Assembly (NCBI RefSeq): GCF_003234085.1
Contig: NZ_QKSD01000010.1
Coordinates: 62,001-126,000, forward strand
Source: Curtobacterium sp. MCPF17_052
Lineage (GTDB): Bacteria; Actinomycetota; Actinomycetes; Actinomycetales; Microbacteriaceae
Reading direction: 5' to 3'
Length of the DNA: 64,000 nucleotides
The notes below the pieces were generated by a model, which saw only the letters and a program-made list of their open reading frames with translations, did no database searches and was not told the DNA's origin. Made by a program: the position numbers and the translations under genes. Shown piece after piece: positions 58,018 through 62,407 of the stretch; the first letter of the stretch is position 1; every line of letters starts with the position of its first letter.

Positions 58018-58794
58018 ATGACCACCAGCACCGCCGAGAAGGCGACGACCCTCAAGTCCCTGCACGAGGCGCCGGAGATCCTCCGCGTCGTGAACGTCTG
58101 GGACGCGATCAGCGCCAAGACCGTCGCCGCGTTCCCGGAGACCCGCGCGATCGCGACCGCCGGGCACTCGATCGCCGCGATGTACGGCTACGAGGACGGC
58201 GGCATGTCGCTGGACCTCGCCCTCGCCGGCGCGAAGACCGTCGTCGACGCGGTGGACCTGCCGGTCAGCGCGGACCTCGACGACGGCTACGAGGACCCGG
58301 CCGAGACCATCCGTCGTGCGATCGGCATCGGCGTCGTCGGTGCCAACGTCGAGGACCGCCTGCGTCCGTTCGACGAGTCCGTCGCCCGGGTGGCCGCGAT
58401 CATGCGCGCAGCCGAGCAGGAGGGCATCGACTTCCAGCTGAACGCCCGGACCGACGCGATCGCCCGTGGCGGCGACCGTCCGATCCAGGAGAGCATCGCG
58501 GACGCCATCGCCCGTGGGAAGGCCTTCCTCGACGCCGGAGCCCCGCTCGTGTTCGTCCCCGGTGCCGTCCAGCGTGAGGTCGTCGAGCAGCTGGTCGAGG
58601 GCCTGGGCCGCGGCAAGCTCAGCGTCATCGGGCTGCCGGGTGCCCTGCCCGCCGCCGAGTACCAGGCGCTGGGCGTCGCCCGCATCTCCTACGGTCCGTT
58701 GACGCAGCGCGTCGCCCTGCGGGCGCTCCGTGACCTCACGGCCGACCTGTACGCCGGCGGCGTGATCCCCGAGGACACCCCGACGCTCAACTGA
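58018..58794 (+). CDS. isocitrate lyase/PEP mutase family protein
   Basis: 258 residues, TIM-barrel lyase of the PEP mutase/ICL superfamily (oxaloacetate hydrolase-like small form). Motifs: ATAGHSIAAMYGYEDGG near 50, SADLDDGYEDP near 85 (metal Asp), NVEDRL near 115, NARTDAIARGG near 145. The signature KKCGH of true isocitrate lyase is absent, so the reaction is open. ATG 58018 is 7 nt after TACTGT (58005-58010), leaderless. Confidence 0.9.
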   Translation: MTTSTAEKATTLKSLHEAPEILRVVNVWDAISAKTVAAFPETRAIATAGHSIAAMYGYEDGGMSLDLALAGAKTVVDAVDLPVSADLDDGYEDPAETIRRAIGIGVVGANVEDRLRPFDESVARVAAIMRAAEQEGIDFQLNARTDAIARGGDRPIQESIADAIARGKAFLDAGAPLVFVPGAVQREVVEQLVEGLGRGKLSVIGLPGALPAAEYQALGVARISYGPLTQRVALRALRDLTADLYAGGVIPEDTPTLN

Positions 58795-58800
58795 GCCGTC

Positions 58801-58848
58801 GACGGACGGGAGGCCCGTGGCGGTGTCGCCACGGGCCTCCCGTCCGTC
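58801..58848. terminator. bidirectional terminator
   Basis: Perfect 22-bp stem (58801-58822 / 58827-58848) with 4-nt loop GTGT between the convergent lyase and amidase genes; contains the GGGAGGCCCG core. Confidence 0.93.
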
Positions 58849-58880
58849 GGGCGGTCGCCATCGCGACCGCGGGTCGCGAC

Positions 58881-60722
58881 CTACCCGAGCGCCGGGTACA
58901 GCGTCGGCGAGGTGCGGGCGTGCGTCGCCTGCTCGAAGCCGTAGCCGAGCCCGATGACGGTCCCCTCGTCGTACGAGCGGCCGAGGAACTCCAGGTTGAC
59001 GCCGGCGCCGGTGATCGTGGCGTCCGCTGCGGTCGCCTGCCCCATCGGGACCGTGACGGCCGGCATGCCGGTGTTCGGGCTGAGGCGCATGTTCGTGCCC
59101 TGCGTGCCGTACGGGGTGCCGGACGGGTAGACGAGCGCGTCGAGGTCCTGCGCGTCCATCATCCCGGTGACCACCTGCTTGCCGGTGGCGATCTGCGTGG
59201 TGTGCGAACCGTTCGGGCCCGCCCATGCCTGGTACTGCGCGTCGATGATCGCGTCACGCTGCTGGTAGGTGCTCTTCCGGCTCGGCACGTACTCCCCCGA
59301 AGCGAGGATGCCCTGCAGCGACCGTGCGGTGACGTCCGGGTCCAGGTGCTTCGCGACGTACTGGTCCAGGTCGTGCTTGAACTCGTTCGTGCTGCCGCTG
59401 CCCTCGCTGAGCACCCGGTTGAACTCCGGCGTCGCGGTGATCGGGACGACGGTGGCGCCCTGGGCCTCGAGGGTCGCCTGCGCCTGGGCGAAGAGCCGTG
59501 CGGTGGTGCGGTTCGTCCCGACCATCGAGGTCACGTACCCGATGCGCTTGCCCCGCAGCGCGGTCGGGTCGAGGAACTGCGTGTACGAGGTCGGGACCTT
59601 GCCGGTCTGGCCTTCGGTGACCGGGTCGGCTGCGTCGACCCCGGTGACGGCGTCCAGTGCGACGGCCGCGTCGGTCACCGAGCGGGCGAGGGGCCCGCCG
59701 GTGTCCTGCGACAGTGCGAGCGGGATGATGCCGTCGCGGCTCGTCAGGCCGACGGTCGGCCGGATGCCGACGAGCTGGTTGTACGACGAGGGGATGCGGA
59801 TCGAGCCGCCGGTGTCGGTGCCGAACCCGATGCCTGCCAGGTTGGCGGAGACGGCCGCACCGGTGCCACCGCTCGAGCCGCCCGCGGTCTGGCTCGTCAC
59901 GTAGGGGCTGGCGACGAGGAGCGAGGACCCGGCCGGCTGGTTCGAGGAGAACTCGGAGACGAAGCCGTACGCGAACTCGTCGAGGCTGGCCTTGGCGAGG
60001 ACGACTGCTCCGGCGTTCCGGAGGCCCGTGACCATCGCCGCGTCGGTGTCGGTCTGGTTGTCGTCCCAGCAGCCGCAGCCGCCCGTGGTCGGCATGTCCT
60101 TCGTGTCGTAGTTGTCCTTCAGTGCGATCGGCACGCCGAGCAGCATGCTCGTCATGCCGTGTGCCGCTCGTTCGGCGTCGGCGGCCTTCGCGGCGGCGAG
60201 TGCTCCGGCGTTGGTCGTGACGATGGAGTTGAGCGGTCGTCCGCCCGTTCCCGTGTCCGTGGTGGTCCGGTCGTAGGCGGCGATGCGGTCCAGGTAGTCC
60301 TGGGTGATCTCGGCCGAGGTCGTGACCCCGGCGTTCATCGCGGCCTGCATGTCGAGCGTCGAGGCCTCGACGAGCTGGAAGGGCCCGTCGTCGTAGATCA
60401 TCCGCTGGGACAGGCCGGCGACGTCCGCCAGCGTGATCGTGCCGTTGCCGTCCGCGTCGGCGGCCGAGACCGTCGACCAGTCCGGGTCGGTGCTGGTCGT
60501 GCCGAGGTGGTCGGACAGGACGGTGAGGTCGGCCTGCGTGACCTGGTCGTCGCCGGTGAGGTCGAGCGCCGTGTAGTACGGCGCGAGCATGGCGGCGGGG
60601 CTCGCGTCGACCGCGGCCGGTGCCGCGTTCGCGACGAGGGACGGGGTCGCGACGACGGCGGTGCCGACGAGGGCCAGGAGCGCGGCTCCGGCGACGGTGG
60701 TGCGGCGACGGCGGGTCGTCAC
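58881..60722 (-). CDS. secreted amidase (amidase signature family) with N-terminal dockerin
   Basis: 613 residues. Signal peptide (VTTRRRRTTVAGAALLALVG...ANAAPA), then a two-repeat dockerin near 45-110: DLTGDDQVTQADLTVLSDHL and DADGNGTITLADVAGLSQRM, each a calcium-loop F-hand. The amidase follows: Lys in GVPIALKDNYD near 202, Gly/Ser loop TAGGSSGGTGAA near 270, and catalytic Ser in FGTDTGGSIRIPSSYN near 300, the full Ser-cisSer-Lys set. GTG 60722 has GGAGGA 7 nt ahead and starts the signal directly; ATG 60794, overlapping the cohesin-gene stop, would add 24 odd residues. Exported; substrate unknown. Confidence 0.92.
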   Translation of the reverse strand: MTTRRRRTTVAGAALLALVGTAVVATPSLVANAAPAAVDASPAAMLAPYYTALDLTGDDQVTQADLTVLSDHLGTTSTDPDWSTVSAADADGNGTITLADVAGLSQRMIYDDGPFQLVEASTLDMQAAMNAGVTTSAEITQDYLDRIAAYDRTTTDTGTGGRPLNSIVTTNAGALAAAKAADAERAAHGMTSMLLGVPIALKDNYDTKDMPTTGGCGCWDDNQTDTDAAMVTGLRNAGAVVLAKASLDEFAYGFVSEFSSNQPAGSSLLVASPYVTSQTAGGSSGGTGAAVSANLAGIGFGTDTGGSIRIPSSYNQLVGIRPTVGLTSRDGIIPLALSQDTGGPLARSVTDAAVALDAVTGVDAADPVTEGQTGKVPTSYTQFLDPTALRGKRIGYVTSMVGTNRTTARLFAQAQATLEAQGATVVPITATPEFNRVLSEGSGSTNEFKHDLDQYVAKHLDPDVTARSLQGILASGEYVPSRKSTYQQRDAIIDAQYQAWAGPNGSHTTQIATGKQVVTGMMDAQDLDALVYPSGTPYGTQGTNMRLSPNTGMPAVTVPMGQATAADATITGAGVNLEFLGRSYDEGTVIGLGYGFEQATHARTSPTLYPALG

Positions 60723-60790
60723 GGGGGTTCCTCCGGGAGTTCGGGATGTCGTGGTGTCTTCTGCCAGGTCACGGCGACGGGGCGTGGCGG

Positions 60791-61651
60791 TCATCGGGCG
60801 TCCTCCGTCGATGCGGGGCGACGCGCGCGACGGCGGGCGAGGACGAGGCCGGCACCCGCGAGCAGCAGGGCTGCGCTCGCGGCGATCCAGGGTGCGAGGT
60901 CGGCGCCGGTGAACGCGAGCGAGCCGCCGACGGGCCTGCCGGAGGTGCTGCCCACCGGGTCCGTGCCCGTCCCGGCGTCGGTGCCGGTGCCGGTGCCGTC
61001 GGTCCCGCCCGCGTTCGGGGTCGCGCTCGGCGTCGCCGTGGGAACGCCGGTGGGGGTGGCGGTCGGCGTCGGTGTCGGCGTCGGCGTCGGCGTCGGCGCT
61101 GCGGCGATCGTGACGGTCGTCGATGCCGGGTCGGTCAGCGTGATGGTGCTGCCGTCGGACGCGACCACGGTGACGCGCGTCACGGCGAGGTCGACGGTGG
61201 CGGGGCTCGTCGCGGTCAGCTCGACCGAGGCGGCGAGGTCGCCGGAGATCGCCGGGGAGGTCCCGAGCCGGGTGTGCAACAGCGAGATCGTGTCGCCGTC
61301 CTGCTCGACGGAGTCGAAGCCGCCGTCCGGGCCGGTCACGCTGCCGTCGACGACCTCGAGCGAGTCGGCGTCGGCGGCGAGGTCGATCTGGTACGCGAAG
61401 ACGTCGGTCGTCGCGGGCAGGGTGAGGTCGACCTCGAGGGTGTCGCCGACCGTCACCGACGCCGGCGCGGTGATCGTGGCCGTCGTGGCGACCGGGGCAG
61501 CCGACGCCGGGGAAGCGGCGAGGACGGCGAGGCCGAGGCCGCCGACGGCGATGACGGCCGTCCGGAGCGCGGCGGTTCGGGGCGTCGTCGTTCGGGGCGT
61601 CGTCGTTCGGGGCGTCGTGGTTCGGGAGCGGAGCCGAGTGCGGTGCTGCAT
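60791..61651 (-). CDS. cohesin-domain surface protein with LAFTG sortase signal
   Basis: 286 residues. N-terminal Thr/Pro/Arg repeats (RTTTP three times), signal helix ending SPASA, then a cohesin-like beta domain about 50-165 (ASVTVGDTLEVDLTLPATTD, VFAYQIDLAADADSLEVVDG), a Thr/Pro stalk (TPTPTPTPTPTATPTG), and a C-terminal LAFTG motif, hydrophobic helix and RRRARR tail, the class E sortase layout. ATG 61651 has AAGGA about 9 nt ahead. TACGGT (61708-61703, reverse strand) may be the -10. The gene stops 68 nt before the amidase start: one operon, cohesin and dockerin. Confidence 0.9.
   Translation of the reverse strand: MQHRTRLRSRTTTPRTTTPRTTTPRTAALRTAVIAVGGLGLAVLAASPASAAPVATTATITAPASVTVGDTLEVDLTLPATTDVFAYQIDLAADADSLEVVDGSVTGPDGGFDSVEQDGDTISLLHTRLGTSPAISGDLAASVELTATSPATVDLAVTRVTVVASDGSTITLTDPASTTVTIAAAPTPTPTPTPTPTATPTGVPTATPSATPNAGGTDGTGTGTDAGTGTDPVGSTSGRPVGGSLAFTGADLAPWIAASAALLLAGAGLVLARRRARRPASTEDAR
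61576..61627. repeat. 15-bp in-gene repeat
   Basis: GTTCGGGGCGTCGTC repeats about 3.5 times and encodes the RTTTP repeats near the N-terminus of the cohesin protein. Confidence 0.85.
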
Positions 61652-61795
61652 CCGTGCGGGTCCTTCGTCAGGGTTCGGGCTGAACGCTTGCTCAGTGCTC
61701 GAACCGTAACGACGGGGTGTTTCGCGCTCAGGCCCGACCGGTTTCCCGCGTGTTACGCCTTCCGTCGGGGCCGCCGGGGCCACTAGCGTGCGGTC

Positions 61796-62407
61796 ATGGC
61801 CCTCGACCTCGACGCACTGCTCGCTCTGCCGACGCCGACCGCGGCCCGGGCGCTGGACGTCGTCCGTGCCTGGTCGTCGCCGGCTCTCGTGCACCACTGC
61901 CTGCGGTCCTGGGCGTGGGCGACGCTCCTGGCGCCGACGATCGAGCTCGCCCCGGACCCCGAGCTGCTCTTCGTCGCGACGATGCTCCACGACCTCGGTG
62001 TCACCCCGCACTTCGACGCCGCGCAGGTCCCCTTCGAGGTCGCTGGCGGCGCCGTGGGCAGTGTCTTCGCGATCGGCGCCGGCTGGCCCGCCGCACGCGC
62101 GCGGCGCGTCGGGGAGATCGTCGAGCGGCACATGTGGCCCTCGGTCGACCCGGACCTCGACGCCGAGGGGCACCTGCTCGAGGTCGCGACCTCGCTCGAC
62201 GTCTCCGGCGTCGGCATGGAGCGCTGGGACCATGACGACCTCCGGATCGTGACCGCAGCCCTCCCCCGCCTCGGCTTCTCCGACGACTTCCACGGGCTCG
62301 TGCACGACCAAGCGGGTCGGAAGCCCGAGTCGGCAGCTGCCCGGCTGGACCACTCCGGGAACGTGCTGGCCGGTGGCCAGCGGTGGGCGAGCCTCCTGGC
62401 CGGTTGA
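61796..62407 (+). CDS. HD-domain phosphohydrolase-like protein (cyanamide hydratase-like)
   Basis: 203 residues. HD metal motifs: LVHHCLRSWAWATLLAP near 32 (His), ATMLHDLGVTPHFD near 61 (HD pair), VERHMWPSVDPD near 103 and a further Asp. The arrangement is like cyanamide hydratase (Ddi2 type). ATG 61796 is 6 nt after TAGCGT (61784-61789), leaderless. Substrate unknown. Confidence 0.88.
   Translation: MALDLDALLALPTPTAARALDVVRAWSSPALVHHCLRSWAWATLLAPTIELAPDPELLFVATMLHDLGVTPHFDAAQVPFEVAGGAVGSVFAIGAGWPAARARRVGEIVERHMWPSVDPDLDAEGHLLEVATSLDVSGVGMERWDHDDLRIVTAALPRLGFSDDFHGLVHDQAGRKPESAAARLDHSGNVLAGGQRWASLLAG

What the first reader, a model, noticed from the sequence alone, without database searches (positions are those of the whole stretch)
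58881..61651. Cohesin-dockerin pair for surface display of an amidase in a non-cellulosomal actinobacterium
Two adjacent, co-directional genes encode a cohesin-bearing, sortase-signal (LAFTG) protein and a secreted amidase with two dockerin calcium loops. Cohesin binding to dockerin is the defining cellulosome interaction, but here there is no scaffoldin array and no glycanase. The simplest reading is a one-scaffold, one-enzyme system that fixes an exported amidase to the cell wall. The amidase has a full catalytic set, so the display would be functional.
Basis: partly seen in the sequence, partly recalled or inferred. Interest (0 to 1): 0.82.

Follow-up and report, generated by a model that had tools for sequence, protein, structure and literature searches.

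The report
Cohesin–dockerin pair holding a secreted amidase
A Curtobacterium-like soil and plant bacterium and many actinobacterial relatives carry a two-gene set in which a predicted cell-wall protein bears the socket (cohesin) and a secreted peptide-amidase-like enzyme bears the matching plug (dockerin), the coupling known mainly from cellulose-degrading cellulosomes, apparently used here for a single non-cellulose enzyme.

Summary
The window encodes a Pfam cohesin with an LAFTG sorting signal (60791-61651, -) and, just downstream, a secreted amidase with a Pfam type-I dockerin (58881-60794, -). A model of the cohesin domain (pLDDT 92.5) best matches non-cellulosomal C. perfringens cohesins. 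The assembly (76.6% complete) has one cohesin, one dockerin and one sortase (class E) over cut-off. The pair is a conserved actinobacterial module: of the 80 closest amidase loci kept, all have a dockerin (partial in two) and 73 a cohesin beside it or in frame; the other 7 end 64-448 bases upstream. In 63 of 64 loci with a separate upstream cohesin it bears a sorting signal. Two same-genus genomes without the pair have its flanking genes directly adjacent. Two additions: it is widespread, and the anchor is not its constant part. In the Nocardioidaceae loci and one fusion clade with named Microbacterium members no sorting signal was found, and cohesin and dockerin-amidase are often one chain. 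Binding was not shown; a fusion model and a covariation test were inconclusive. New variant of a known kind.

The parts
60791..61651 (-). Cohesin gene, 286 aa: export signal, one cohesin domain, Thr/Pro-rich linker, LAFTG sorting signal
   Evidence: translation; Pfam PF00963; NCBIfam NF058582; export signal read by eye
61106..61483 (-). Cohesin domain (residues 57-182)
   Evidence: Pfam 28.5 bits, cut-off 24.1; AF2 pLDDT 92.5 and structural match to 2jh2/2w1n/2vo8
60794..60919 (-). LAFTG sorting signal (residues 245-249, 60905-60919), hydrophobic stretch and basic tail
   Evidence: NF058582 at residues 245-275; position checked; class E sortase in the same genome
58881..60794 (-). Dockerin-amidase gene, 637 aa (613 aa if it starts at GTG 60722): export signal, dockerin, amidase
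   Evidence: translation; Pfam; start sites read; export signal read by eye
60402..60563 (-). Type I dockerin domain (residues 78-131)
   Evidence: Pfam PF00404 25.2 bits, cut-off 22.9
60528..60563 (-). Calcium loop 1 (residues 78-89)
   Evidence: positions 1, 3, 5, 9, 12 conserved in 74-81 of 81; position checked
60423..60458 (-). Calcium loop 2 (residues 113-124)
   Evidence: positions 1, 3, 5, 9, 12 conserved in 77-80 of 81; position checked
58965..60311 (-). Amidase-signature domain (residues 162-610), triad Lys226, Ser307 or 308, Ser331
   Evidence: Pfam 252.8 bits; best PDB match S. maltophilia peptide amidase 5ac3/1m21; these residues in 81 of 81

Best explanation
Both proteins are exported. 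The class E sortase cuts the cohesin protein at LAFTG and links it to the peptidoglycan. The dockerin at the N-terminus of the amidase, folded around two calcium ions, docks one-to-one on the cohesin, so that a peptide-amidase-like Ser-Ser-Lys enzyme works at the cell surface instead of being lost to the medium. The genes are adjacent, co-directional and gained or lost together. Shown here: domains, cohesin fold (model), sorting signal, sortase gene, catalytic residues, linkage. Inferred: export, co-expression, binding, calcium need, wall attachment, substrate (C-terminally amidated peptides or other amides).
For: Pfam, NCBIfam and structure matches. One cohesin, one dockerin, one sortase over cut-off in the assembly. 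Of the 80 best amidase loci kept (of 100 confirmed) all 80 carry a dockerin (partial in L109 and L123) and 73 a cohesin; the 7 without end 64-448 bases upstream of the dockerin. 63 of 64 loci with a separate upstream cohesin end in an L..TG sorting signal, 50 of them LAxTG; the exception, L084, is frameshifted. Of 199 family genomes, 16 have the dockerin-amidase and 15 of these a cohesin; the other, G056, is cut by a contig end. Of 394 class genomes, 9 have an over-cut-off cohesin and 8 of 9 have the dockerin-amidase next to it. G031 and G105 gave no cohesin or dockerin match and have the two flanking genes 88 and 86 bases apart. Natural fusions and polyproteins with both domains in one chain.
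Against: No binding evidence: AF2 of a natural Coh-linker-Doc fusion gave pTM 0.65, which decides nothing, and the strongest covariation between cohesin and dockerin was no higher than between cohesin and amidase (top 20 pairs, p 0.495; effective depth 44). No sorting signal on the cohesins of L099, L108, L127, the class genomes of family f34 and the N- and C-terminal fusions read. One cohesin (G503) without a dockerin-amidase. The Pfam dockerin model reaches E 0.001 in only 4 of the 394 class genomes; other dockerins were seen only with a profile built here from this family.
Confidence: 0.75

Rival explanations
1. The pairing serves assembly or stability of the amidase (one-to-one complex, closed monomer, or head-to-tail chains), and the wall anchor is an optional extra.
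For: The constant part across architectures is cohesin plus dockerin, not the anchor: fourteen database proteins plus L119 are Coh-Doc-amidase on one chain with no room for a sorting signal, six are Doc-amidase-Coh without L..TG in the last 80 residues; Isoptericola L099 has a bare exported cohesin; the Nocardioidaceae and f34 cohesins end in other tails.
Against: The anchored form is the commonest in the sample (63 of 73 loci with a cohesin) and is the form in this window. Oligomers are untested.
Confidence: 0.3
2. The cohesin-like domain is only an Ig-like stalk, and the dockerin only a calcium-bound stabiliser of the amidase; they do not bind each other.
For: Calmodulin (E 4e-7) scores about as well as the best PDB match (8x39, E 2e-7) for the dockerin stretch, integrin and adhesin domains share the cohesin fold at lower Z, about 11 to 12, and there is almost no linker between dockerin and amidase.
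Against: Pfam finds both domains over cut-off, and no EF-hand family is listed for the window protein up to E 10; the best folds are cohesins; the two domains co-occur almost without exception, which unrelated stalks would not do.
Confidence: 0.1
3. The cohesin displays other dockerin proteins, as a small general scaffold.
For: The assembly is 76.6% complete, so other dockerins could be missing; one further dockerin match of 14.6 bits lies under the cut-off.
Against: One dockerin over cut-off in the genome, and a single match in each of the 12 family genomes that have one over cut-off; the partner is adjacent.
Confidence: 0.05

Closest known systems
Non-cellulosomal cohesin-dockerin complexes of Clostridium perfringens glycosidases (X82 cohesins; PDB 2jh2, 2ozn, 2vo8, 2w1n)
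   Different: There all five cohesin proteins also carry a glycosidase domain (same passages); here the cohesin protein has no enzyme domain in the window and usually ends in a sorting signal, and the dockerin enzyme is an amidase.
Cell-surface anchoring scaffoldins of cellulosomes and mucinolysomes (for example the LPxTG protein cSca5 of Limousia)
   Same: Wall-anchored cohesin predicted to receive dockerins (PMC12997984, passages seen).
   Different: cSca5 is predicted to receive scaffoldin dockerins and those of most glycosidases; here there is one cohesin, one dockerin, one amidase, and no second one over cut-off in the assembly.
Peptide amidase of Stenotrophomonas maltophilia (PDB 1m21, 5ac3)
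   Same: Best solved relative of the catalytic domain (5ac3 E 2.7e-73); the Ser-Ser-Lys residues align.
   Different: The matched chains (503-514 residues) have no room for a dockerin; the NCBIfam equivalog PRK08137 is matched at 354 bits, under its 534 cut-off, so the substrate cannot be carried over.

Membership tests
Cohesin (PF00963) | Profile score over the curated cut-off | tested here: met
   28.5 bits against 24.1
Cohesin (PF00963) | Cohesin jelly-roll fold | tested here: met
Cohesin (PF00963) | Binds a dockerin | not testable with these tools
   needs purified domains; fusion model inconclusive
Dockerin type I (PF00404) | Two 12-residue calcium loops, each followed by a helix, over cut-off | tested here: met
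   25.2 bits against 22.9; loop positions conserved; helices after both loops in the model of the L119 relative, not of the window protein
Cellulosome | Scaffoldin with several cohesins and several dockerin-bearing glycanases | tested here: not met
   one cohesin and one dockerin over cut-off in the held assembly, the dockerin on an amidase; assembly 76.6% complete
Class E sortase substrate | LAXTG, hydrophobic stretch, basic tail, with a class E sortase in the genome | tested here: met
   NF058582 32.2 bits against 27; NF033747 225.8 bits against 160
Amidase signature family (PF01425) | Profile score and Ser-cisSer-Lys triad | tested here: met
   252.8 bits; residues in 81 of 81
Peptide amidase (PRK08137 equivalog) | Equivalog score over cut-off | tested here: not met
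   354.1 bits against 534

The most novel reading that the evidence does not exclude
Actinobacteria hold a family of minimal cohesin-dockerin machines built around one amidase, in which the coupling itself is the conserved device and its use has shifted between lineages: wall receptor in most Micrococcales, a free partner or one with other tails elsewhere, and self-coupling single-chain enzymes (closed monomers or head-to-tail polymers) in Nocardioides and a Microbacterium-type clade.
Probability: 0.35. Interest if true: 0.7.

Novelty: new variant of a known kind. Interest (0 to 1): 0.53.

Why it matters
Cohesin-dockerin coupling is studied mainly in anaerobic polysaccharide degraders. A conserved pair of the simplest size (one receptor, one enzyme) in common actinobacteria, on an amidase, suggests the coupling is used as a general way to hold an exported enzyme, gives a small natural pair for biochemistry and surface display, and offers split, polyprotein and fused versions for asking what the coupling is for. 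It also bears on a published statement: a Cellulosimicrobium cellulans paper reports no dockerin or cohesin domains in its genome (strain F16; PMC4562250, passages seen), while four loci titled C. cellulans (other strains) carry the dockerin-amidase, three of them with the cohesin in the DNA held. Strain F16 itself was not examined here.

Tried and rejected
Docking by a natural fusion: AF2 of the Coh-linker-Doc part of Microbacterium L119 with 53 rows gave pTM 0.65; both domains were well modelled, the linker (153-167) under 50, and no inter-domain error is returned, so it decides nothing. Two earlier alignments for this job put rows on the wrong domain and were not used: A3 (seen) and A2 (judged from its consensus only).

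Covariation: mutual information over 95 paired sequences (effective 44): the top 20 cohesin-dockerin couplings were no higher than entropy-matched cohesin-amidase ones (p 0.495); the mean was higher (p 0.0015) by a tiny amount. Not used as support.

Cellulosome, EF-hand-only and multi-dockerin readings: see the rivals. L109, one of the two 'same frame N' loci, has a frame that loses the linker and sorting signal part-way; treated as a frameshift. In the tree, P0137 and P0138 were labelled C-terminal fusions by their number before I had looked; one search showed they are Coh-LSVTG-membrane stretch-second export-like stretch-Doc-amidase polyproteins. The single-clade result for the 15 anchor-free N-terminal fusions does not depend on that label; the change counts for the C-fusion group do. 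The 2x2 table was typed by hand, and its p value is not used.

No promoter-like or terminator-like site was found by the consensus scan of 58700-61900.

Literature: ten searches. Those that combined cohesin or dockerin with amidase or actinobacterial terms were 17 (2 of 2 papers listed), (1 of 1; 15 of 62 listed; 4 of 4); no paper listed there describes this pair by title, start of abstract or, for PMC5817068 and PMC4562250, the passages read. Peer et al. 2009 on non-cellulosomal cohesins (seen only as a reference) and Adams et al. 2008 are not held, so whether the 2009 survey lists any of these proteins is unknown.

Full report
What is there. On the minus strand, 61651 to 60791 encodes a 286-residue protein with an export signal (read by eye), one cohesin domain (PF00963, 28.5 bits, cut-off 24.1), a Thr/Pro-rich linker and an LAFTG sorting signal. 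Directly after it, 60794 to 58881 encodes a 637-residue protein with an export signal, a type I dockerin (PF00404, 25.2 bits, cut-off 22.9) and an amidase-signature domain (PF01425, 252.8 bits). With the ATG at 60794 the genes overlap by four bases; a GTG at 60722 is an equally good start by its GGAGGA and gives a 613-residue protein. In 81 aligned sequences (window plus 80 loci) Lys226, Ser307, Ser308 and Ser331 are present in 81 of 81, and positions 1, 3, 5, 9 and 12 of the two loops keep their commonest residue in 74 to 81 (in loop 2 position 5 is D in 78 and N in 2). Identifying these residues with the peptide amidase triad rests on the alignment to 1m21 and on recalled residue roles; the calcium roles are recalled too.

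The genome. The held assembly (76.6% complete, 31 contigs) has one cohesin and one dockerin over cut-off, both in this window, and one weaker match each at 14.6 bits elsewhere, under the cut-offs. It has one sortase, on another contig, which is class E (225.8 bits, cut-off 160). Class E sortases of actinobacteria use LAXTG signals (PMC5148588, passages seen). The organism is a Curtobacterium by its closest named relatives (amidases 99% identical).

Conservation. A scan of a collection of 84,980 species genomes confirmed 100 relatives of the amidase and kept the best 80. All 80 have a dockerin by a profile built here, partial in L109 and L123. 73 have a cohesin beside it or in the same frame; in the 7 without, the DNA held ends 64 to 448 bases upstream of the dockerin, while 1.8 to 6 kb downstream was held and showed none. 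Of the 73: 63 separate upstream genes with an L..TG sorting signal (50 LAxTG, 7 LPxTG, 6 others), one upstream frameshifted (L084), three separate downstream genes without sorting signal (L099, L108, L127), four C-terminal fusions, all titled Nocardioides (L115, whose tail looks frameshifted, L120, L123, L126), one N-terminal fusion (L119) and one apparent fusion that is a frameshift (L109). Two further samples agree. Of 199 genomes of the family, 16 have the dockerin-amidase, 15 of them with a cohesin (G155 on separate contigs; G056 cut by a contig end). For the other 183 this rests on the two searches, whose sensitivity differs and which returned loci for their best matches only, 34 genomes matched the cohesin protein, most of those outside the 16 through its linker and sorting tail. 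Of 394 genomes of the class, 9 have an over-cut-off cohesin; 8 of 9 have the dockerin-amidase next to it, and one (G503) does not: its five amidase matches, 34 to 39% identical, do not reach the dockerin residues. Against this, the Pfam dockerin model at E 0.001 found only 4 of these 394 genomes; the others were recognised by my own profile, which was built from this family. Likewise Pfam missed the dockerin of L119 and the cohesin of L126 at E 0.1, and put the dockerin of L120 just under cut-off (21.8 against 22.9).

Gain and loss as one unit. Three same-genus genomes gave no match to the cohesin protein or the dockerin model. In two of them, G031 and G105, the genes that flank the pair in the window (a PEP-mutase-family gene ending at 58794 and an HD-domain gene starting at 61796) lie 88 and 86 bases apart (G105 read); the third matched neither flank. 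In Curtobacterium loci with the pair the same flanks recur: both in six (L051, L053, L054, L055, L058, L059), only the PEP-mutase gene in three (L052, L056, L063).

Beyond the anchored form. A search with the N-terminal 300 residues of the L119 fusion, limited to the 7996 candidates sharing most words, found 22 proteins at E 1e-30: 14 Coh-Doc-amidase chains with about 33 residues between cohesin and dockerin and nothing after the amidase, so no sorting signal; 2 polyproteins in which a sorting signal and a second export-like stretch lie between cohesin and dockerin; and 6 Doc-amidase-Coh chains with no L..TG in their last 80 residues. The anchor-free N-terminal fusions form one clade (15 rows, SH-aLRT 100); its two named members are Microbacterium (L119; P0127). 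In the Nocardioidaceae loci the cohesin, fused or separate, is followed by long tails that look Ig-like; Pfam supports this only weakly (L108 PF16640 32.3 bits, cut-off 35.5, and nothing for the tails of L120 or L126). The unnamed family f34 of the class sample has the same kind of tail. Isoptericola L099 has a bare exported cohesin downstream. Two family genomes (L155, L156) end their cohesin protein in a membrane-like stretch without L..TG in the last 50 residues, and L153 has the order reversed with an LSGTG signal. So the pairing is nearly constant and the anchor is not. For this window, with its LAFTG and class E sortase, wall anchoring is still the best reading.

Tests that did not help. 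The fusion model and the covariation test are inconclusive.

Relation to what is known. It would work like a one-to-one version of a cellulosome's cell-surface receptor, and its cohesin is closest to the C. perfringens non-cellulosomal kind. It is not a cellulosome: no multi-cohesin scaffold and no dockerin glycanase were found in the held, incomplete assembly. Cohesin and dockerin on one chain have a precedent in GH31 proteins of C. perfringens and Akkermansia (PMC12997984, passages seen). No paper describing this actinobacterial amidase pair appeared in the searches named under Tried and rejected; the 2009 survey of non-cellulosomal modules could not be read.

Noticed in passing
58801-58848: Perfect 22-base inverted repeat with a 4-base loop between the convergent PEP-mutase-family and amidase genes (checked); the consensus scan listed no terminator there. 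A 20-base perfect repeat stands between the flanking genes at the empty site in L145.
   Followed up: partly
P0137, P0138 (database proteins): Natural polyprotein: cohesin, LSVTG signal, membrane stretch, second export-signal-like stretch, dockerin, amidase; would need cutting between the two halves.
   Followed up: partly
L109, L123, P0131: Dockerins that lack much of the stretch around the second calcium loop.
   Followed up: no
L148 (G503): Cohesin gene next to a gene that reads like an M28-type aminopeptidase (by eye), with no dockerin-amidase in the 13 kb held; the one orphan cohesin of the class sample.
   Followed up: partly
L089; P0044: A locus titled Stenotrophomonas maltophilia groups with Microbacterium in the tree and a protein labelled Neobacillus citreus is 82% identical to this Curtobacterium protein; probably contaminated or misnamed records.
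   Followed up: no
L119 and P0123-P0136: Conserved linker between cohesin and dockerin in the anchor-free fusions (GLPGKRHAASKADENRHRGW-like).
   Followed up: no
61577-61621: Three tandem copies of a TTTPR-coding unit near the start of the cohesin gene.
   Followed up: no
G000:C27:40578-41180, C1:33363-33647, C8:7842-8204: Other large open frames in the same genome match the linker and sorting tail of the cohesin protein, possible further sortase substrates.
   Followed up: no
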